From contig DHDO01000005.1 of the NCBI GenBank assembly GCA_002399435.1, positions 14,162-26,064 of the forward strand: a DNA stretch of 11,903 bases, given 5' to 3'. Below, in pieces: positions 3,940-11,903 of this stretch. The position numbers and the translations under genes are program-made. Under the pieces are notes generated by a model. The model ran no database searches. It was not told the DNA's origin and saw only the letters and a list, made by a program, of their open reading frames with translations. This DNA comes from Firmicutes bacterium UBA4874. GTDB lineage: Bacteria; Bacillota; Clostridia; Caldicoprobacterales; DTU083. Within the stretch, counting starts at the first letter, position 1. Each line of letters begins with the position of its first letter.

Positions 3940-5394
3940 TCAGTTCTTTTCAAATGTGCGGATGGCATCCCGGATTGTCTTTTCCATGGCTTCCCTGCCG
4001 TACTGATCCACCTCGGAGCTGTCCTTTGTCCCATGGGTCAGACAGGCAGGGCCGCCGATACATCCGCCTTCGCAGGCCATGCCTTCTATGAAGTTCTCCG
4101 GCAGGGCGTTTCGCGATGCCCTCAGCAATGCCTTTTTACAGGCATCAATCCCATCACAGGAAATAGGACGGTAGTCAAAACTTTCAAGGCCCTGTTCCTT
4201 CAGCGCCTGGCGGATGGCATCGGCGACCCCGCCGCTGCGTGCAAAAATTCTGCCGTAATAAGAGGCATTGTCCAGATCAATTTCCGGCAGGGAGGCCAGA
4301 TCAATATCCCTGCTGTCGATGAGTGCCTGCAGTTCTTCAAACGTCAGGACACAATCCACATAAGGGCGGACCGCTTCTTTCCGGGCCTCCATTTTTTTGG
4401 CGATGCAGGGACCGACAAAAATCACCTTTGCCGAAGGATCTGATTTTTTGATATATTTTGAAATCTCTGCCATGGGGGACAGATTACCGGAGATATCCTT
4501 CGTAAGCCCGGGAAATGCCTTCTCCATCAGCTTTACAAAGGCAGGGCAGCAGGAGCTGGTCAGAAATCCCTTTTCCGCCAGTTCCCTTGCTTCGGAACAG
4601 GCTACCAGATCGGCGCCCAGTGCTGCTTCCACCACCGTGTGGAAGCCCAGGGCCTTCATCCCGCTGATCACCTGACCAAGCCTGACATAACTGAATTGAC
4701 TGGAGATGGAGGGAGCCACCACGGCATATACCCTGTAAGCTTCGTTGTTCCGGCTCTTTTTCAGGATGTCGATGGCGTCAAGAATCAGGGACTTATCCAT
4801 AATGGCGCCAAACGGGCATCGGTTCACGCAGGCTCCGCAGGAAATGCATTTATCGTTGTCGATGGAAGCAGTCTTGTTTTCGCTCATATGGATTGCCTTT
4901 ACCTTGCATGCCTTTTCGCAGGGACGCTTGTTGTCGGAAATGGCGTTGTAAGGGCAGACGCCGGCACATCTTCCACACTCCACACATTTGTCCTTGTTGA
5001 TATGTGCTTTTTGGTTTTCCCCAAAGGTGATGGCATCCCGCCTGCATGCACCCATGCAGTAGTGGGCGATACATCCGCGGCAGGCGTCCGTTACTTCAAA
5101 TCCCCCCACCGGGCATTCGTCGCAGGCAATGTCAATGACTTCAACGATATTCGGGTTTTCCCGGCTGCCGCCGGTCGCCAGTTTGATGCGCTCCGCCACG
5201 ATGGCCCGTTCCTTGTAGATGCAGCAGCGCATCGTCGGCCTGGGACCTGGAACGATGATATTGGGAATGTCGCTGTAACATTCCAGCAGCCGGTCCTCAA
5301 ACGCGTGCCTGGCAACCTCCCGCAATACCTGGTATTTTAAATATTGAACACTTGTATCGAATTTTCTCTTTATCAACGGGACCCCACTTTCCAT
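3940..5394 (-). CDS. hydA2: Monomeric [FeFe] hydrogenase, group B-like
   Basis: The 484-residue product has an N-terminal cysteine-rich half and a C-terminal H-cluster domain. The N-terminal part has MRCCIYKERA (C57, C58) and CDECP (C91, C94), then C105/C108/C113/C117. Two ferredoxin motifs follow: C137-C140-C143-C147-P and C183-C186-C189-C193-P, with C159/C163 between them. The H-cluster loops are TSSCCPAF at 279-286 (L1), GPCIAKK at 328-334 (L2, Gly in place of the Met of classical MPC) and MACEGGCIGGP at 439-449 (L3). This is the pattern of group B (B1/B3) clostridial hydrogenases, thought to exchange electrons between ferredoxin and protons/H2 in the cytosol. No maturase genes (hydE, hydF, hydG) are in the window. 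ATG 5394 has only a weak ribosome site and an in-frame TAA just upstream; the TTG at 5376, preceded by AAGTGGGG, is an alternative start. It lies 129 bp after the phosphatase gene, as the last gene of the adhE-hydS operon. The symbol follows R. albus gene order and is an inference. Confidence 0.87.
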   Translation of the reverse strand: MESGVPLIKRKFDTSVQYLKYQVLREVARHAFEDRLLECYSDIPNIIVPGPRPTMRCCIYKERAIVAERIKLATGGSRENPNIVEVIDIACDECPVGGFEVTDACRGCIAHYCMGACRRDAITFGENQKAHINKDKCVECGRCAGVCPYNAISDNKRPCEKACKVKAIHMSENKTASIDNDKCISCGACVNRCPFGAIMDKSLILDAIDILKKSRNNEAYRVYAVVAPSISSQFSYVRLGQVISGMKALGFHTVVEAALGADLVACSEARELAEKGFLTSSCCPAFVKLMEKAFPGLTKDISGNLSPMAEISKYIKKSDPSAKVIFVGPCIAKKMEARKEAVRPYVDCVLTFEELQALIDSRDIDLASLPEIDLDNASYYGRIFARSGGVADAIRQALKEQGLESFDYRPISCDGIDACKKALLRASRNALPENFIEGMACEGGCIGGPACLTHGTKDSSEVDQYGREAMEKTIRDAIRTFEKN

Positions 5395-5523
5395 GATTTA
5401 TCGCTATCCATTGATTGCACTTTCCCCGCGAAAAAGCCACAATACCGTAAAAGAACAAAGGACTTCCTGGTTCGGAACGCCGCTGATTGCAACACGGCTC
5501 CGGCGGAATGCGTATTTGCATCA

Positions 5524-6696
5524 TCAATAATAGCGGACCTCTATTTTTTTCCCCATATGCTTCAGGCACTCCGCCAGCTCGTCGATCAGCCGCATCTTCA
5601 GGTTGAAATGGATGGGCAGATCGGGATTTTGATGAGCCGGGTTCACGGCCTTGCCTACGAAAAAGTGAATATCCGTGGCTTCTTCAAATAACATCCCGGC
5701 GATCCGGGAAGCGCCGTCCTTTTTCACACACCACTCGGTATAGCATCGGTTGTCCGCCAGACAGCTCTGCGCATAATGCAGCACCCGGTTGATGGTGATG
5801 ATTCCCTCCGTTACCAGATCGACGCCGTCTATTTTTGCAATAGGCGGAATATCCGAATCCACATAGTCGAACCCGATTCGGACATCCTTTCCCAGAAATT
5901 TGGCCGCCAGGGAAGAGGTTGTTCCGCCGCAGACAATATGTTTCCCTTCTTCGGAGAAGAAGCGGGACAACATCCTTTCATCGTCCCCGGGGTCCCGCGG
6001 AGGGCCGATCAGCAGACTCACTGTTTTCCGATTCCGGACCTTCAGGACGCCGATGGTCGTATCGTCTCCCGGCATACCTTCGTACAGGCGGTTGCAGACA
6101 TCCAGCAACAGGGTGGAGATGCTCCTGGCGCTGCGGCTCGCCTGATAGTGTTCCTCGATATATCGGATGATGTTTTCCCTCTGCCAGCCGAAATTCAGGG
6201 CATGGCCAACTCCCGCGTAAACGGCGCCGTCACTCATTATAACAAAAATATCGTCCTTTGTCAGGTCGATTTTGGACTGATAGATGATCTTCCCATCAAT
6301 CTCCACCCTGTCTCTCCGATATTCGTAATTTTCGCCGTTTCGCAGCATGATGACAGGGGGATTGTCGTATTGGATGATCTCCGCTTCCCGGTCGCCGGCG
6401 ATCCGGAGGATGGTGAAAGTGGAATAGGCAATCCCCCGTTTTTGACAAACCGGCAAAGTGGAGGCAATGGTGGAGACGCATTCCTCCAGACTCATGGAAT
6501 GGGCGATCATGGTAGAGATGATTTTAGCAGTCAGAGTGGAAAGAATACTGGCCTTGACGCCGGAACCCAGTCCGTCCGCCAGGACAAAGACCAGGGAGGG
6601 ATCCTCCTGTTCAATGGTTTCCACATGATCGCCGCAAAGCTGTTCTCCGTATTTGTTCAGACTGTTCCAGCCCATATCGATGCACAGATCATTCAT
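5524..6696 (-). CDS. SpoIIE/PP2C-type serine/threonine phosphatase with unassigned C-terminal domain
   Basis: The product has 390 residues. Residues 1 to about 222 form a PP2C/SpoIIE phosphatase domain. The metal-binding acidic residues are in place: GD at 22-23, LADGLGSG at 39-46 (D41), MSDGA at 154-158 (D156) and GDDTT at 210-214. Such enzymes remove phosphate from serine or threonine, often on anti-sigma-factor antagonists. Residues from about 225 to 390 form a second domain I do not recognise, with CGGTTSS at 256-262 and no membrane segment. The start codon overlaps the end of hydS by 8 bp, and an AGGAG lies about 10 nt upstream inside hydS, so translation is probably coupled. The TGA at 5524-5526 is directly followed by a second in-frame TGA. 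The context makes it the probable output or relay of the HydS sensor. Its target protein and opposing kinase are not in the window. Confidence 0.88.
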   Translation of the reverse strand: MNDLCIDMGWNSLNKYGEQLCGDHVETIEQEDPSLVFVLADGLGSGVKASILSTLTAKIISTMIAHSMSLEECVSTIASTLPVCQKRGIAYSTFTILRIAGDREAEIIQYDNPPVIMLRNGENYEYRRDRVEIDGKIIYQSKIDLTKDDIFVIMSDGAVYAGVGHALNFGWQRENIIRYIEEHYQASRSARSISTLLLDVCNRLYEGMPGDDTTIGVLKVRNRKTVSLLIGPPRDPGDDERMLSRFFSEEGKHIVCGGTTSSLAAKFLGKDVRIGFDYVDSDIPPIAKIDGVDLVTEGIITINRVLHYAQSCLADNRCYTEWCVKKDGASRIAGMLFEEATDIHFFVGKAVNPAHQNPDLPIHFNLKMRLIDELAECLKHMGKKIEVRYY

Positions 6697-8368
6697 TTTC
6701 CAGGGACTCCTTCAGCTTGGTCAGTGCGATTTTTGTTTCCGCCGTGGTTTCGCCCAAAAGGGAAGCGATTTCCTGAACAACCCGCATTTGCTTCCCGATG
6801 ACCTTGTCGGTGATTTCTATGGTGTTCCGGTTATTCTGTTCCTTTTGGATGCGCTCCGTTTCTTCTTCGGTGATATCCCGCATGATGCTGATCAGGATAT
6901 GGAAATTCTTATCATGGATAATGGTTTCCCGGATATATTTTTTGTACTGACGGAGGTAATTCTGCTTGTCACGGGTTCCTCTGCCGCTTGCCAATACGGT
7001 AATGTATTCGATGGGGTCCAGGAAATCCACCACCGGCCTGCCCAGGGCATCCCCTTTGCTCTTGATATTCATAATCCGGCAGGCCGCTCCGTTGATCTGC
7101 TGGATGTTCAGGTCCTCATCCAGTACCATGATCCCGTTGGGGGTATTGTTGATGATATTGTCGGAAAAGGACTCTGCCTTTTCTTTCAAAAAGGGCAGGC
7201 ACATGGTCAGGTCGGCCTTGCCCATGCAGACGGCCGCCGCTTTTTCCCTGCAGGTATTATAGCCGCAGCTGCCGCAATTCAGTTCCTGCTCCGGTGTTGG
7301 CTTTCCCATCAGCAGCAGGACTTCCCGGATGGCGTCATTCCCGGGCATTTTTATTTCCCGGGCCTTAAAAGGCATGTCTTTTCGCAATTCTTCCCTGCCG
7401 GGCTGGGAAACCGGAAAATCCGCATCACCGGCATAACCATCCACGGCAAGATAGTCCCGGATGGTGACCCTGTGGTCCTTGTCCATGGCCGGGCCGCCGA
7501 TACAGCTGCCCGAACAGGCGGACATCTCAATGAAGCATTTGGAGATCCTGCCGCAAACAATATCCTCCAGGGCGTGGATGCAGTTTTCTGTACCGTCGAT
7601 GGTGATATAGCTGTAATCCTTCCGCGGGCGGTCCATGGACCGGATGATTCCTCCGGCGGTGGGGAAAAGCCTGGCGCGGCCGGCATGGTGCTCTTCCGGT
7701 ACCGGCTCAAAGGAAATATTTTCTTCCTCCAGCCATTCCGTCAGTTCTTCAAAGGTCAGCACACAGTCCACAATGCCTTCATACCCGTCCGCCTCCGCCT
7801 TTTTGGAGATGCACGGACCAATAAACACGGTATAGGCTTCCGGATGTTCCTTTTTTATTTTCCTGCAGTGGGCCTGCATGGGGGATATCACAGGGGCCAG
7901 ATATTTCAGCGCTTCCGGATAATACTTCTGAATCAGCGTATTCACGGAATGGCAGCAGGAAGAGATAATGACGTCATGGGTGCCATCCCGGATCATTTCA
8001 TCGTATTGCCTTTTGACAATGGTCGCCCCCACGGCGGTTTCTTCCGCGGCGGTAAACCCAAGACGGGTCAGCGCCTTTTCCATGGACCGGATGCTGACGC
8101 CTTCGTAGTTGGCCACAAAGGACGGGGCAATGCTGGCAAAAACCGGTCGGGAAGAGCGAATCATTTCCCTGACCCGGTCCGTATCATTGCGTATGATCTT
8201 GGCATTCTGCGGGCAGTTGACAAAGCACTGCCCGCAGAGGATGCAGTCCTCCTCCAGAATATGGGCCTGGTTATCGGAGAATTGAATGGATTTTACCGGA
8301 CAATGCCGGATACACTTATAGCAGTTCCTGCAGTTTGATTTTTTCAGTCGCAGATAGTTTCCCTTCAT
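6689..8368 (-). CDS. hydS: Putative sensory [FeFe] hydrogenase with PAS domain (HydS, group C)
   Basis: The product has 559 residues. An N-terminal 2[4Fe-4S] ferredoxin domain (C13-C16-C19-C23-P and C42-C45-C48-C52-P) is followed by the H-cluster domain (about 70-300). Its loops are altered: SSCCHS at 136-141 (L1), GPCISKK at 184-190 (L2) and MSACSGSCIGGP at 282-293 (L3). All cysteines expected for the cluster are present. Next is a small [4Fe-4S] domain, CGSCGYNTC at 365-373 plus C390, then a PAS domain (about 398-505, starting near NTPNGIMVLDEDL) and a helical tail (505-559). This architecture defines the HydS group, proposed to sense H2 or redox state rather than produce H2. No histidine kinase or cyclase domain follows, so the signal must leave through protein contacts, most likely with the phosphatase encoded next. 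ATG 8368 forms an ATGA overlap with the upstream [2Fe-2S] gene. An in-frame extension to 8497 only overlaps that gene. Confidence 0.9.
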   Translation of the reverse strand: MKGNYLRLKKSNCRNCYKCIRHCPVKSIQFSDNQAHILEEDCILCGQCFVNCPQNAKIIRNDTDRVREMIRSSRPVFASIAPSFVANYEGVSIRSMEKALTRLGFTAAEETAVGATIVKRQYDEMIRDGTHDVIISSCCHSVNTLIQKYYPEALKYLAPVISPMQAHCRKIKKEHPEAYTVFIGPCISKKAEADGYEGIVDCVLTFEELTEWLEEENISFEPVPEEHHAGRARLFPTAGGIIRSMDRPRKDYSYITIDGTENCIHALEDIVCGRISKCFIEMSACSGSCIGGPAMDKDHRVTIRDYLAVDGYAGDADFPVSQPGREELRKDMPFKAREIKMPGNDAIREVLLLMGKPTPEQELNCGSCGYNTCREKAAAVCMGKADLTMCLPFLKEKAESFSDNIINNTPNGIMVLDEDLNIQQINGAACRIMNIKSKGDALGRPVVDFLDPIEYITVLASGRGTRDKQNYLRQYKKYIRETIIHDKNFHILISIMRDITEEETERIQKEQNNRNTIEITDKVIGKQMRVVQEIASLLGETTAETKIALTKLKESLENE

Positions 8369-8622
8369 GCCTGCACGCTTCCCGCCTTTTTCAGTATATG
8401 CCGGTCGAAGATCTCTGAAAAGTTCTCCGGGGATACGCCGCATACGATCCGGTCGTCCACCTTTATGGTGACGCCGTCGGTGCATTTGCCCAGACAAAAG
8501 GCGGCGGACAGATTCACTTTATCTTCCAGCCCGTTTTTTTTCAGATATTCCTTCATCAGGCGGACAATGTGGTAAGATCCCTTCAAATGGCAGGAACTGC
8601 CGACACAAACACAGATGTTCAT
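8365..8622 (-). CDS. Thioredoxin-like [2Fe-2S] ferredoxin domain protein
   Basis: This is an 85-residue cytosolic protein. Four cysteines, C6, C11, C43 and C47 (CVGSSC and CLGKC), give the pattern of thioredoxin-fold [2Fe-2S] ferredoxins, as in NuoE and the HydC/HndA subunits of multimeric hydrogenases. C4 is an additional cysteine. The helix and sheet pattern (HLKGSYHIVRLMKEYLKKNGL, then a strand before the second cysteine pair) fits this fold. The start at 8622 is fixed by a very strong GGAGGAGG ribosome site 5-6 nt upstream; an in-frame ATG at 8700 lacks one. The stop overlaps the hydS start (ATGA), which points to coupled translation and probably a fixed ratio with HydS. It probably passes electrons to or from HydS, or serves as a regulatory subunit, but this is an inference from position. 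Confidence 0.85.
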   Translation of the reverse strand: MNICVCVGSSCHLKGSYHIVRLMKEYLKKNGLEDKVNLSAAFCLGKCTDGVTIKVDDRIVCGVSPENFSEIFDRHILKKAGSVQA

Positions 8623-8715
8623 AATTCCTCCTCCTGTCCCATGTACCTGGAACGGATATGCTTCTTCGTTCTTATCATTTTTCTGATCCGGCTCAGGCAT
8701 TTTAACCCGCTGATT

Positions 8716-11376
8716 TCATCGGATCGGTTCCCCGTAATAGGCTTTGCGGTACAGTTCCTTCAGATCGCTTACCAGGGGATAGCGGGGGTTGGCCGTGGTG
8801 CATTGGTCTTCAAAGGCCCTTTCCGAAAGTTCCGGCAGAGCCGCCAGGAAATCTTTTTCGTCCACACCGCATTCCTGAATGGATGCAGGCTCGTTCAGGC
8901 GTTTCATCAGGTCCTGTATGGCCCGGATCAGGCTTGTGATCTGTTCTTCCCGGGTACTGCCGCCAAAATCCATATGGCGGGATATCTGCGCATAACGGGC
9001 GTCTGCCACGAATTCGCTGTATTTCGGAAAGATGGCAAATTTAAAGGGTTTCTGCGCATTGTAGTCGATGGTGTAGGGAAGCAGAATGGCATTGGCGCGG
9101 CCATGCGGAATATGGAATTCCCCTCCCAGTTTATGGGCCAGGGAATGATTGACTCCCAGGAACGCATTGGAGAAGGCCATGCCGGCAATGCAGGACGCAT
9201 TATGGATTTTTTCCCGGGCTACTTCATCATTGGGGTTTTCGTAGCTTCGGGGCAGATATTGGAACACCATCTCGATGGCTTTCATGGCCAGCCCATCGGT
9301 ATAATCCGAAGCAATCACGGACACATAAGCTTCAATGGCATGTGTCAGGACATCCATGCCGGTGTCTGCGGTAATGGACTTCGGCATGGTGGCGACAAAC
9401 TGGGGATCGATGATCGCCACATCCGGGGTCAGTTCGTAGTCGGTGAGGGGATACTTGATATTTCCGTTCTTTTTGTCGGTTATGACAGAAAAGGAAGTTA
9501 CTTCCGAGCCGGTTCCTGACGTAGTGGGAATGGCGACCATCTTTGCCTTTGTCCCCAGGTTCGGAAAATGGAAGGCGCGTTTGCGGATATCCATGAACTT
9601 CAGCTTCAGCCCGTCAAAGCTGGTATCCGGATGTTCATAAAACAGCCACATTCCCTTTGCCGCATCAATGGCAGAGCCGCCGCCCAGCGCGATAATCACA
9701 TCCGGCTGGAAGGCATTCATGGCCGTGACGCCTTTTTGAATGGTTTCCACCGACGGATCCGGTTCCACTTCAGAGAAGATCTCACTGTGGCAGTACTGTT
9801 GCCTTTTTCTCAGGTAGTAGAGAACCTTATCCACATATCCCAGCTTCACCATCATGGGGTCTGCGACGATAAAGGCCCGGTGGATATCAGGCATATCCCT
9901 CAGATACTGAACCGAATCTTTTTCAAAATAGATCTTGGGTGGAATTTTGAACCACTGCATTCGGGCCCGCCTCCTTGCGATGCGCTTCTTGTTGATCAGA
10001 TTCACGGTGGAAACATTGGCTGTGGTGGAATTCCTGCCGAAGGATCCGCAGCCCAGGGTCAGGGAGGGAACATTGGTGTTGTAGATGTCTCCGATGGCTC
10101 CCTGGGAAGACGGCGTGTTGACAATGATACGTCCCACCTGCATTTCCTCTCCGAACCTTCTGCAGAGCTCCCGGTCGCTCGAATGAATCACGGCGGAATG
10201 TCCCAGGCCTCCCAGCTTCAGCATATCCTTTGCATATTGAAAGCCCTGTTTTTCATCCCTGCAGACGAAATAAGCCAGTACGGGGGACAGCTTTTCCAGG
10301 GAAAGGGGATACTCCCGGGAAGGCCGCGGCAGCCTTGCCAGCAGGATTTTGGTTCCCGCCGGGACATCCAGTCCCGCACCTTTTGCGATGGTTTCGGCAG
10401 ATTGCCCTGCCACGGCAGGATTCACCGACATTTTTTCCGTATTGATGACATAACGGCTGAGCCGGGCGGTTTCTTCCTCATTGGTAAAATAACAGTTGTT
10501 TTCCTTCATATAGGATTCAAATGCCTCATGGATCTCCTCATCCACGATAACAGCCTGTTCCGATGCACAGATCATGCCGTTGTCAAAGGTTTTGGAAATC
10601 ATAAGGTCCGTGCAGGCCCTGCCGAGATCCACATTTTTGTTAATATAGCAGGGAACGTTTCCGGGGCCGACGCCCAAAGCGGGTTTCCCGCAGCTGTAAG
10701 CCGACTTGACCATGCCGGCACCCCCGGTGGCCAGGATCAGGGAGATTCCCTTGTGCTTCATCAGCGCCGTGGTGGCTTCCAGGGAAGGAGTCTCAATCCA
10801 TTGGATGCAGTGTTCCGGCGCGCCATTTTGAACAGCGGCCTTTTTGACAATGCGGGCTGCCTCCGAAGAGCATTTCTGAGCGGAAGGGTGAAACGCAAAT
10901 ATAATGGGATTCCTGGTTTTTGCGCATATCAGGGATTTGAATATGGTGGTGGAAGTGGGATTGGTAACCGGGGTAATGCCGGCGACAACTCCCACCGGTT
11001 CTGCAATTTCAATGTAATCCTCCAGCTCATTTTCCTCAATCACACCGACGGTCTTCTGATGTTCGATGCTGTGATAGATATATTCCGTGGCAAAGATGTT
11101 CTTGATGACCTTGTCTTCGAACAAGCCTCTTTTTGTCTCGTCCACGGCAAGATGCGCCAGATACATATGCCGGTCCAGCCCGGCCAGGGTCATGGCCTGT
11201 ACAATCCGATCCACCTGCTTCTGGTCCAGTTTCATATATTCCTTCAGGGCCTGCTGCGCGTTGGCTACCAGATGGTCCACCATCTCCCCGATGTCTGTGG
11301 AAGAGGTGTTCGGTACAGCCTTGTTTTCCTTCCCCGTATTTTCTGTGTTTCGATTTGCTTGCTTTTTCTTTTCCAT
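8716..11376 (-). CDS. adhE: Bifunctional acetaldehyde-CoA/alcohol dehydrogenase AdhE
   Basis: The 886-residue product catalyses acetyl-CoA to acetaldehyde to ethanol, using two NADH. The N-terminal CoA-acylating aldehyde dehydrogenase domain (about 30-460) has GVGPGN at 235-240 and the catalytic C270 in DNGMICASEQ. The C-terminal iron-dependent alcohol dehydrogenase domain (about 475-886) has GGGS at 565-568 and the iron ligands D675, H679 (GMDVLTHAIEA), H744 and H758 (GVNHSLAHKL ... HIPHG). All key residues are present. Members assemble into spirosome filaments. Compared with E. coli AdhE, the first 24 or so residues form an extra Lys/Asn/Thr-rich stretch. The start at 11376 is supported by AAGGGGG about 7 nt upstream. 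It is the first gene of the operon; 93 bp separate it from the [2Fe-2S] gene. Transcription is probably Rex-controlled, given the operator-like site over its promoter. Confidence 0.97.
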   Translation of the reverse strand: MEKKKQANRNTENTGKENKAVPNTSSTDIGEMVDHLVANAQQALKEYMKLDQKQVDRIVQAMTLAGLDRHMYLAHLAVDETKRGLFEDKVIKNIFATEYIYHSIEHQKTVGVIEENELEDYIEIAEPVGVVAGITPVTNPTSTTIFKSLICAKTRNPIIFAFHPSAQKCSSEAARIVKKAAVQNGAPEHCIQWIETPSLEATTALMKHKGISLILATGGAGMVKSAYSCGKPALGVGPGNVPCYINKNVDLGRACTDLMISKTFDNGMICASEQAVIVDEEIHEAFESYMKENNCYFTNEEETARLSRYVINTEKMSVNPAVAGQSAETIAKGAGLDVPAGTKILLARLPRPSREYPLSLEKLSPVLAYFVCRDEKQGFQYAKDMLKLGGLGHSAVIHSSDRELCRRFGEEMQVGRIIVNTPSSQGAIGDIYNTNVPSLTLGCGSFGRNSTTANVSTVNLINKKRIARRRARMQWFKIPPKIYFEKDSVQYLRDMPDIHRAFIVADPMMVKLGYVDKVLYYLRKRQQYCHSEIFSEVEPDPSVETIQKGVTAMNAFQPDVIIALGGGSAIDAAKGMWLFYEHPDTSFDGLKLKFMDIRKRAFHFPNLGTKAKMVAIPTTSGTGSEVTSFSVITDKKNGNIKYPLTDYELTPDVAIIDPQFVATMPKSITADTGMDVLTHAIEAYVSVIASDYTDGLAMKAIEMVFQYLPRSYENPNDEVAREKIHNASCIAGMAFSNAFLGVNHSLAHKLGGEFHIPHGRANAILLPYTIDYNAQKPFKFAIFPKYSEFVADARYAQISRHMDFGGSTREEQITSLIRAIQDLMKRLNEPASIQECGVDEKDFLAALPELSERAFEDQCTTANPRYPLVSDLKELYRKAYYGEPIR

Positions 11377-11515
11377 AAAAAGTCCCCCTTATCAAGATGA
11401 AATAACAATCAGGAATCCTGTGTTTCCTTATTGGGCCATATGATACACATTTCTGTGCAGGCCTGTCATGGAACATGCGAAGCTTTCCGGAAACTTAATC
11501 CCCGTAGATTTCCTG
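11377..11515 (-). other. Predicted adhE 5' leader, rich in dyads
   Basis: From the predicted start of transcription (about 11515) to the adhE ATG there are about 139 nt without a convincing ORF. Short dyads follow each other: TTTCCGGAAA at 11484-11493, CATG-GAA-CATG at 11467-11477, CAGGCCTG at 11458-11465, a stem-loop reading UGCACA-GAAA-UGUGUA on the transcript (11459 down to 11444) with a GAAA tetraloop, and CAGGATTCCTG at 11410-11420. The ribosome site AAGGGGG comes just before the start codon. I recognise no known riboswitch or T-box. E. coli adhE also has a structured leader that affects translation. Confidence 0.4.
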
Positions 11516-11521
11516 ATCCCC

Positions 11522-11550
11522 ATCATACCAGAGTTGATTTAGATTGTCAA
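11522..11550 (-). promoter_or_regulatory. Sigma-A promoter of the adhE-hydS operon
   Basis: On the - strand there is a perfect -35 TTGACA (11550-11545), a 17-bp spacer, and -10 TATGAT (11527-11522) preceded by TGG (extended -10, TGn). Transcription would start near 11515. The -35 lies wholly inside the Rex-like operator at 11544-11561. Confidence 0.8.
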
Positions 11551-11561
11551 TAATTTAACAT
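11544..11561. promoter_or_regulatory. Rex-like operator over the adhE -35 box
   Basis: The sequence TTGTCAATAATTTAACAT matches the clostridial Rex consensus TTGTTAANNNNTTAACAA at 12 of 14 fixed positions. It covers the whole adhE -35 box. Rex is an NADH/NAD+-sensing repressor that typically controls adhE and hydrogenase genes in Clostridia. Bound Rex would block RNA polymerase, and a rising NADH/NAD+ ratio would release it. The rex gene itself is not in the window. Confidence 0.65.
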
Positions 11562-11758: not shown

Positions 11759-11776
11759 TTGACAAATATTTAACCA
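11759..11776. promoter_or_regulatory. Weak Rex-like site over the alcohol dehydrogenase -35 box
   Basis: TTGACAAATATTTAACCA matches the Rex consensus at 11 of 14 fixed positions and covers the -35 box. Part of the match is the -35 hexamer itself, so chance is a real alternative. It shares the TTGNCAA...TTTAAC layout with the better site at 11544-11561. Confidence 0.35.
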
Positions 11777-11786
11777 ATGTTATAAT
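11759..11786 (+). promoter_or_regulatory. Sigma-A promoter of the divergent alcohol dehydrogenase
   Basis: There is a perfect -35 TTGACA (11759-11764), a 16-bp spacer, and a perfect -10 TATAAT (11781-11786) with TGT before it (extended -10). An A-rich tract at 11730-11757 lies where an UP element would be. Transcription would start near 11793, giving a leader of about 30 nt. Confidence 0.82.
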
Positions 11787-11823
11787 GGTATGGAATCAAA
11801 TATATCTTGTGGAGGTTTTGTTT

Positions 11824-11903
11824 ATGAAGGGATATGGAGTATTATCTTTGAATCAGCCCGGATGGATTGAAAAGGAGAAACCGAAGTGTGGCCCGCTGGA
11901 CGC
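11824..11903 (+). CDS. Zinc-type NAD(P)-dependent alcohol dehydrogenase, N-terminal part (3' truncated by window edge)
   Basis: Only the first 26 codons are visible. MKGYGVLSLNQPGWIEKEKP closely resembles the start of the clostridial secondary alcohol (isopropanol) dehydrogenases of the medium-chain zinc family, such as the C. beijerinckii enzyme (MKGFAMLGINKLGWIEKERP). These reduce ketones or aldehydes with NADPH or NADH. The catalytic zinc ligands lie beyond the window, so substrate and cofactor cannot be judged. The start is well fixed by GGAGG at 11811-11815 with an 8-nt spacer and a consensus promoter upstream. It is divergent from adhE, and both probably respond to redox state. Confidence 0.75.
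   Translation, partial: MKGYGVLSLNQPGWIEKEKPKCGPLD

What the first reader, a model, noticed from the sequence alone, without database searches (positions are those of the whole stretch)
3940..11376. Five-gene ethanol/H2 operon built around a putative hydrogen sensor
adhE, a [2Fe-2S] protein, hydS, a SpoIIE-type phosphatase and a second [FeFe] hydrogenase run in one direction, and the middle three genes overlap (4 and 8 bp). I recall that in Ruminococcus albus 7 hydS and hydA2 were reported in one transcription unit with an acetaldehyde/ethanol dehydrogenase, a Ser/Thr kinase, a phosphatase and a redox repressor. This locus is a compact version, with neither kinase nor repressor within the operon shown here. 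It suggests that HydS and the phosphatase form a signalling pair controlling ethanol formation and H2 metabolism.
Basis: partly seen in the sequence, partly recalled or inferred. Interest (0 to 1): 0.8.

Follow-up and report, generated by a model that had tools for sequence, protein, structure and literature searches.

The report
Hydrogen-sensor phosphatase operon with ethanol gene
An anaerobic bacterium carries, in one row of genes, an ethanol-forming enzyme, a hydrogen-making enzyme and a likely hydrogen sensor whose gene overlaps that of a phosphatase; the arrangement is real and conserved in relatives, but its kind is already described in other fermenting bacteria.

Summary
In detail: adhE, a 2Fe-2S protein, HydS, a SpoIIE/PP2C phosphatase and a group B [FeFe] hydrogenase run on the minus strand, with 4- and 8-bp overlaps. 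The kind is known: it resembles hfsABCD of Thermoanaerobacterium and the H2-responsive Ruminococcus albus cluster, and HydDB names group C3 'phosphatase-linked'. What the tools add: HydS and this phosphatase are practically inseparable (both in 106 of 391 genomes of the class; HydS directly upstream at 105 of 109 phosphatase places), and the 8-bp overlap recurs in 70 of 86 loci by script. The phosphatase has a conserved C-terminal domain without Pfam match. The 'missing' repressor acts, if at all, in trans: a Rex-like operator sits on the adhE -35 box and Rex is encoded elsewhere. The 'missing' APH-like kinase goes with another adhE lineage in relatives and gave no match in this genome. Most likely mechanism: H2 bound by HydS relieves its restraint on the phosphatase, which raises adhE and hydB, over a Rex/NADH gate. 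H2 sensing, phosphatase target and Rex binding are unproven. New member of a known kind.

The parts
8716..11376 (-). adhE, bifunctional acetaldehyde-CoA/alcohol dehydrogenase (lineage II)
   Evidence: tree
8365..8622 (-). thioredoxin-like [2Fe-2S] protein, 85 aa from the start behind AGGAGGAGG
6689..8368 (-). HydS, PAS-containing group C type [FeFe] hydrogenase, 559 aa
8365..8368 (-). 4-bp overlap of the 2Fe-2S gene and hydS
6689..6696 (-). 8-bp overlap of hydS and phosphatase gene, same length in 70 of 86 loci by script
5524..6696 (-). SpoIIE/PP2C-type phosphatase, 390 aa
6037..6597 (-). SpoIIE phosphatase domain, residues 34-220
5527..6033 (-). conserved C-terminal domain of the phosphatase, residues 222-390, no Pfam match
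3940..5394 (-). group B [FeFe] hydrogenase (hydB/hfsD/hydA2-like)
11522..11550 (-). predicted sigma-A promoter of adhE, TTGACA-17-TATGAT, 11 of 12
11544..11561 (.). Rex-like operator TTGTCAATAATTTAACAT, 12 of 14, over the adhE -35 box, 13 of 14 in G010
11759..11776 (.). weaker second Rex-like site (11 of 14) over the -35 box of the divergent promoter
11824..11903 (+). start of a divergent alcohol dehydrogenase gene (Zn type by recall)

Best explanation
This is an hfs/hydS-type operon in which H2 and NADH are both read. HydS and the phosphatase form a fixed module, made in equal amounts by translational coupling (inferred from the conserved 8-bp overlap). HydS binds H2 at its H-cluster and passes the state through its C-terminal 4Fe-4S and PAS domains to the phosphatase, probably to the phosphatase's own C-terminal domain. 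At low H2 HydS restrains the phosphatase; high H2 (or loss of HydS) frees it to dephosphorylate an unknown regulator, raising adhE and hydB so that reductant goes to ethanol and ferredoxin-linked H2 release. Rex, made elsewhere, adds an NADH/NAD+ gate at the adhE -35 box. Shown: genes, overlaps, synteny, co-occurrence, operator-like sequence. Inferred: H2 sensing, sign of control, target, Rex binding, single transcript.
For: HydS and phosphatase co-occur in 106 of 391 genomes of the class (phosphatase alone 1, HydS alone 4), HydS directly upstream at 105 of 109 places. hydS adjacent in 80 of 80 loci; 8-bp overlap in 70 of 86. HydS has the group C changes M353->G and M497->S, FeS and PAS. Phosphatase D41, G42, D156, G157, D211, D212 invariant in 48 of 48; PP2C/SpoIIE fold. 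Two distant adhE lineages are linked to the cassette. Rex-like site 12 of 14 (4 of 1000 shuffles), the only full match of the pattern in G000, its counterpart the only one in G010. Literature passages: in T. saccharolyticum hfsA/hfsB deletions raise adhE transcripts and ethanol, hfsC/hfsD deletions do not (PMC5707799); the R. albus cluster falls 111-fold in low-H2 co-culture (PMC6776011); a predicted Rex site lies upstream of hfsABCD (PMC5886521).
Against: No expression or biochemical data from this organism. Most cassettes seen lack a linked adhE: full-length adhE stands in the operon in 25 of the 80 loci (some contigs are cut). No phosphatase substrate or antagonist kinase is identified. HydS retains the proton-transfer Cys (79 of 83 rows), so it might be a catalyst. 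A Rex-like site of 12 or more was found upstream of 24 of 77 operons only, and not upstream of adhE in L019, which shares the five-gene order. Where adhE lies downstream (G028, G029) it has Rex-like sites of its own, so co-transcription is not a rule.
Confidence: 0.58

Rival explanations
1. Rex alone controls the operon through the NADH/NAD+ ratio; the H2 effect is indirect (high H2 slows NADH reoxidation) and HydS-phosphatase regulates something else.
For: Rex-like operator over the adhE -35 box, only full pattern match in two genomes; Rex gene present; rex deletion raises ethanol in T. saccharolyticum (PMC5886521, abstract start, passages).
Against: Does not explain why HydS and phosphatase are inseparable and often sit with hydB or adhE; hfsB deletion raises adhE transcripts two- to threefold (PMC5707799).
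Confidence: 0.2
2. HydS is not a sensor but a catalytic subunit: 2Fe-2S protein, HydS and hydrogenase form an electron-transfer complex, with the phosphatase a maturation or assembly factor.
For: HydS keeps the H-cluster cysteines and mostly the proton-transfer Cys; a functional HfsABC hydrogenase was suggested (PMC13277313); group C and D enzymes retain activity (PMC10055695; PMC8163306).
Against: PAS domain, lost E279/E282/S319 equivalents (hand-read), SpoIIE phosphatase beside it at 105 of 109 places.
Confidence: 0.1
3. Partner switching: the phosphatase dephosphorylates a STAS anti-anti-sigma protein countered by an RsbW-like kinase, and a sigma factor carries the output.
For: SpoIIE fold; by eye a second RsbV-RsbW-sigma-like set on another contig, and a HATPase gene inside the hyd (nuoE-nuoF-hydA) operon.
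Against: None of these lies by the operon; family member G009 has the cassette, but its two PF13581 hits are, by eye, the spoIIA set and a HATPase beside another hydrogenase, with no second RsbVW set.
Confidence: 0.12

Closest known systems
hfsABCD operon of Thermoanaerobacterium saccharolyticum
   Same: Order B-C-D (PAS hydrogenase, serine phosphatase, ferredoxin-linked hydrogenase) preceded by one more gene; predicted Rex site upstream; no kinase or rex gene among the four (passages of PMC5707799, PMC11837493, PMC5886521).
H2-regulated eight-gene cluster of Ruminococcus albus 7 (hydS, hydA2, adhE)
   Same: adhE, hydrogenase, sensory hydrogenase with PAS and a Ser/Thr phosphatase together (PMC6776011 passages).
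   Different: No kinase or rex gene in the window's operon; the window's adhE is of lineage II, unlike the rex-adhE-kinase operons fetched here; its hydrogenase is group B by TIGR04105, while the paper calls the R. albus one group A1. R. albus sequence itself not compared.
HydDB [FeFe] group C3, phosphatase-linked putative sensor
   Same: H-cluster, FeS, PAS and adjacent Ser/Thr phosphatase (PMC5037454, table passage).
   Different: HydDB classifier not run; this clade keeps the C299-type Cys in 79 of 83 rows, against 17% of sensory sequences in HydDB (PMC10055695 passage).
Bacillus SpoIIE / RsbX / RsbU PP2C phosphatases
   Different: Has a C-terminal domain of its own without Pfam match; partner gene is a hydrogenase.

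Membership tests
[FeFe] hydrogenase group C3 (phosphatase-linked) | H-cluster domain with its cluster cysteines | tested here: met
   PF02906 172 bits; the C300-type Cys, the Cys of GPC and both Cys of the third motif are in all rows that cover them (83, 83, 84, 84 of 86, rest gapped)
[FeFe] hydrogenase group C3 (phosphatase-linked) | C-terminal FeS cluster motif and PAS domain | tested here: met
   PF04060 and PF00989 over cut-off
[FeFe] hydrogenase group C3 (phosphatase-linked) | Altered residues around the H-cluster (M353, M497) | tested here: met
   Gly in 82 and Ser in 79 of 86 rows, 3 and 2 rows gapped; the C299 position keeps Cys, which is variable in the group
[FeFe] hydrogenase group C3 (phosphatase-linked) | Adjacent Ser/Thr phosphatase gene | tested here: met
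   8-bp overlap in the window; 105 of 109 places in the class
[FeFe] hydrogenase group C3 (phosphatase-linked) | Placement in the HydDB tree | not tested
   no HydDB reference set at hand
[FeFe] hydrogenase group C3 (phosphatase-linked) | H2 sensing | not testable with these tools
   needs biochemistry
hfsABCD-type operon | hfsB-hfsC-hfsD order in one direction | tested here: met
hfsABCD-type operon | hfsA as first gene | tested here: inconclusive
   the 2Fe-2S gene has that place; HfsA sequence not held
   neither in the window; APH-like kinase no match in G000, Rex on contig 15
[FeFe] hydrogenase group B | TIGR04105 over its cut-off | tested here: met
   570 bits, cut-off 450
SpoIIE/PP2C phosphatase | fold and conserved Asp positions (role as metal ligands by recall) | tested here: met
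   activity not tested
Rex regulon | Rex protein in the genome and operator-like sequence at the promoter | tested here: met
Rex regulon | Rex binds the site and responds to NADH | not testable with these tools
   needs a gel shift

The most novel reading that the evidence does not exclude
The phosphatase's C-terminal domain (residues 222-390) is a receiver domain dedicated to HydS, possibly derived from a fold shared with complex I NuoG and formylmethanofuran dehydrogenase, so that HydS-phosphatase is one H2-gated phosphatase enzyme, a direct gas-to-dephosphorylation switch, with metabolic genes (adhE of two lineages, group B hydrogenase, bifurcating-type hydrogenase, nfnAB) as exchangeable outputs.
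Probability: 0.3. Interest if true: 0.65.

Novelty: new member of a known kind. Interest (0 to 1): 0.4.

Why it matters
How [FeFe] sensor hydrogenases pass on the H2 signal is unknown. The co-occurrence counts single out one phosphatase family as the near-obligate partner of this HydS, and its C-terminal domain as the first place to look, in fermenting bacteria whose H2/ethanol balance matters for rumen gas and biofuels. An operon with a Rex-like operator at its head offers a compact test of H2 against NADH control.

Tried and rejected
Considered and rejected: that the kinase is an obligatory antagonist of the phosphatase. It stands in 24 of 80 operon runs, with an adhE upstream in 22 and cut off by the contig end in 2, and G000 has no match (genome 92% complete). 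That repressor control is absent: the operator-like site argues otherwise.

Dropped rows: the Rex count used 77 of 85 operons, 8 having too little upstream sequence or no operon start; operon starts were called by script and are wrong in some loci (in L019 the call began at the 2Fe-2S gene). The overlap count took 86 loci: 80 plus the window, L127-L131; the script misread L127. The tree used 81 of 86 loci with long enough proteins, so G010 is not in it.

Full report
What is there. Five genes run on the minus strand: adhE (11376-8716), a thioredoxin-like [2Fe-2S] protein (8622-8365), hydS (8368-6689), a SpoIIE-type phosphatase (6696-5524) and a group B [FeFe] hydrogenase (5394-3940). The 2Fe-2S start at 8622 lies behind AGGAGGAGG and gives an 85-residue protein. 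Gaps are 93 bp (adhE to 2Fe-2S) and 129 bp (phosphatase to hydB), with no terminator-like site listed on the minus strand. The genome G000 (2.57 Mb, 113 contigs, 92% complete) holds four [FeFe] hydrogenase matches, two of them here. The congener G010 has the same five genes and, after two extra genes, the same downstream neighbours, with identity 96% (adhE), 93% (hydrogenase), 83% (HydS) and 83% and 73% for the two halves of the phosphatase.

Conservation. A scan of genome contigs with the phosphatase gave 137 confirmed relatives, of which the best 80 were kept (59-66% identity). In 80 of 80 hydS is directly upstream; a 2Fe-2S gene lies within three genes upstream in 63, the group B-like hydrogenase follows in 56, nuoE in 7, rex is upstream in 29 and an APH-like kinase in 24 (gene calls are by script and some contigs are cut short). 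Because these loci were chosen by the phosphatase, I made a second count on 391 genomes drawn from the class: the phosphatase family is in 107, HydS in 110, both in 106; phosphatase alone in G156, HydS alone in G094, G099, G100 and G196 (thresholds 1e-40 and 1e-75). HydS is upstream, same strand, within 400 bp at 105 of 109 phosphatase places; the other four are in G277 and G368 (HydS on another contig), G132 (same contig, about 15 kb away) and G156. The hydS/phosphatase overlap is exactly 8 bp in 70 of 86 loci by script; the script misread G010, which by its ORF also has 8. In the distant relatives G013, G028 and G029 it is 4, 4 and 1 bp.

HydS. It has two 4Fe-4S motifs, the H-cluster domain, the FeS motif and PAS. 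Around the H-cluster it shows M353->G (82 rows) and M497->S (79 rows) of 86, with 3 and 2 rows gapped, as in T. maritima HydS (PMC8163306 and PMC10055695, passages). Unlike that protein, the C299 position keeps Cys in 79 of the 83 rows that cover it (Ala in L094, L129 and L131, Ser in L059). The second paper gives Cys there in only 17% of sensory sequences. The E279, E282 and S319 equivalents are lost (hand reading).

adhE and the kinase. Full-length adhE stands in the operon in 25 of the 80 loci, and unlinked in L024 and L026. The tree splits the rows deeply (100/100): lineage I, 23 of the 25, of which 22 have the APH-like kinase next to adhE (L038 is the exception), and lineage II, with the window, G010, L019, L070, G028, G029, L024 and L026. 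L019 (Candidatus Tabaqchalia) has the window's exact five-gene order; L070 has four of the five. In G028 and G029, of the same order, a lineage II adhE lies downstream of the cassette with Rex-like sites of its own. G009, of the same family, has lineage I with the kinase. So adhE of two lineages and in two positions has come to lie by this cassette; in the cassette tree the linked lineage II label needs 4 changes (shuffled mean 4.9, 31 of 500 as low). The kinase matches PF01636; whether it acts on proteins is unknown. It gave no match in G000 and a 28% match with a stop in G010.

Rex. The consensus used was recalled and agrees with the motif in PMC5886521. The site at 11544-11561 fits 12 of 14 (4 of 1000 Markov shuffles of the region reach this) and covers the -35 box TTGACA of the predicted adhE promoter. 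With a degenerate pattern written after seeing the site, it is the only full match in G000 and its counterpart the only one in G010 (9 and 11 places with up to one mismatch; reversed control 6 and 8). An alignment with G010 shows the two promoter/operator stretches, and a leader stretch, conserved in an otherwise more diverged intergenic region. Over the relatives, 24 of 77 upstream stretches have a site of 12 or more, against 0.51 expected from shuffles and 0 of 77 control stretches inside hydS. L019 had none of 10 or more upstream of its adhE. The one Rex match of G000 is on contig 15.

How it most likely works. In T. saccharolyticum deletion of hfsA or hfsB raises adhE transcripts two- to threefold and ethanol yield, deletion of hfsC or hfsD does not, and deletion of all four gave no substantial rise in ethanol (PMC5707799, passages). 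In R. albus the whole cluster drops 111-fold when a partner removes H2 (PMC6776011, passages). One sign fits both: HydS restrains the phosphatase at low H2, H2 or loss of HydS frees it, and the active phosphatase raises adhE and the hydrogenase. hfsA deletion has polar effects, and the R. albus effect may be indirect, so the sign is a proposal. The phosphatase target is unknown; candidates noticed by eye are STAS proteins of a second RsbVW-sigma-like set.

Comparison and verdict. The gene kind, the sensor hypothesis and the phosphatase link are published (HydDB C3 in PMC5037454; PMC6776011; PMC5707799; PMC11837493; passages seen of each). The window is a new member with a lineage II adhE, no kinase and a Rex gene elsewhere. 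The added value is the near-obligate pairing and the undescribed phosphatase domain. Paper searches (listings) showed no paper in the open library on that domain.

Noticed in passing
window 11759-11903: A perfect TTGACA-16-TATAAT promoter points away from the operon to a second alcohol dehydrogenase (full length in G010, L127:4216-5286), with a weak Rex-like site on its -35 box (11 of 14; 10 of 14 in G010).
   Followed up: partly
L121:4393-9386 (G000 contig 71): The bifurcating-type hydrogenase operon nuoE, nuoF, hydA contains a 190-aa HATPase and a small 2Fe-2S protein; the HATPase is a possible protein kinase.
   Followed up: partly
L175:969-3956 (G009 contig 76): A 444-aa [FeFe] hydrogenase resembling group D sensors by eye stands beside a HATPase gene: perhaps a kinase-side counterpart to the phosphatase-linked HydS in the same genome.
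   Followed up: no
L174:2497-4492 (G000 contig 86): RsbV-RsbW-sigma-like genes, by eye, besides the spoIIA set on contig 56 (L173).
   Followed up: no
L122:6540-7928 (G000 contig 72): A further [FeFe] hydrogenase, 462 aa, with PF02906 as its only Pfam match and no ferredoxin domain.
   Followed up: no
window 11480-11520, L127: Conserved 5' leader stretch GAAAT.TACGGG.AT.AA.TTTCCGGAAA between G000 and G010; leader folds at z -2.2.
   Followed up: partly
L129:8533-13211 (G013): HydS and phosphatase followed by a histidine kinase and a LytTR response regulator, then nuoE, nuoF and a hydrogenase gene.
   Followed up: no
L021, L032, L034, L049, L078, L095: A thioesterase-like gene (by eye) lies between the 2Fe-2S gene and hydS in these loci.
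   Followed up: no
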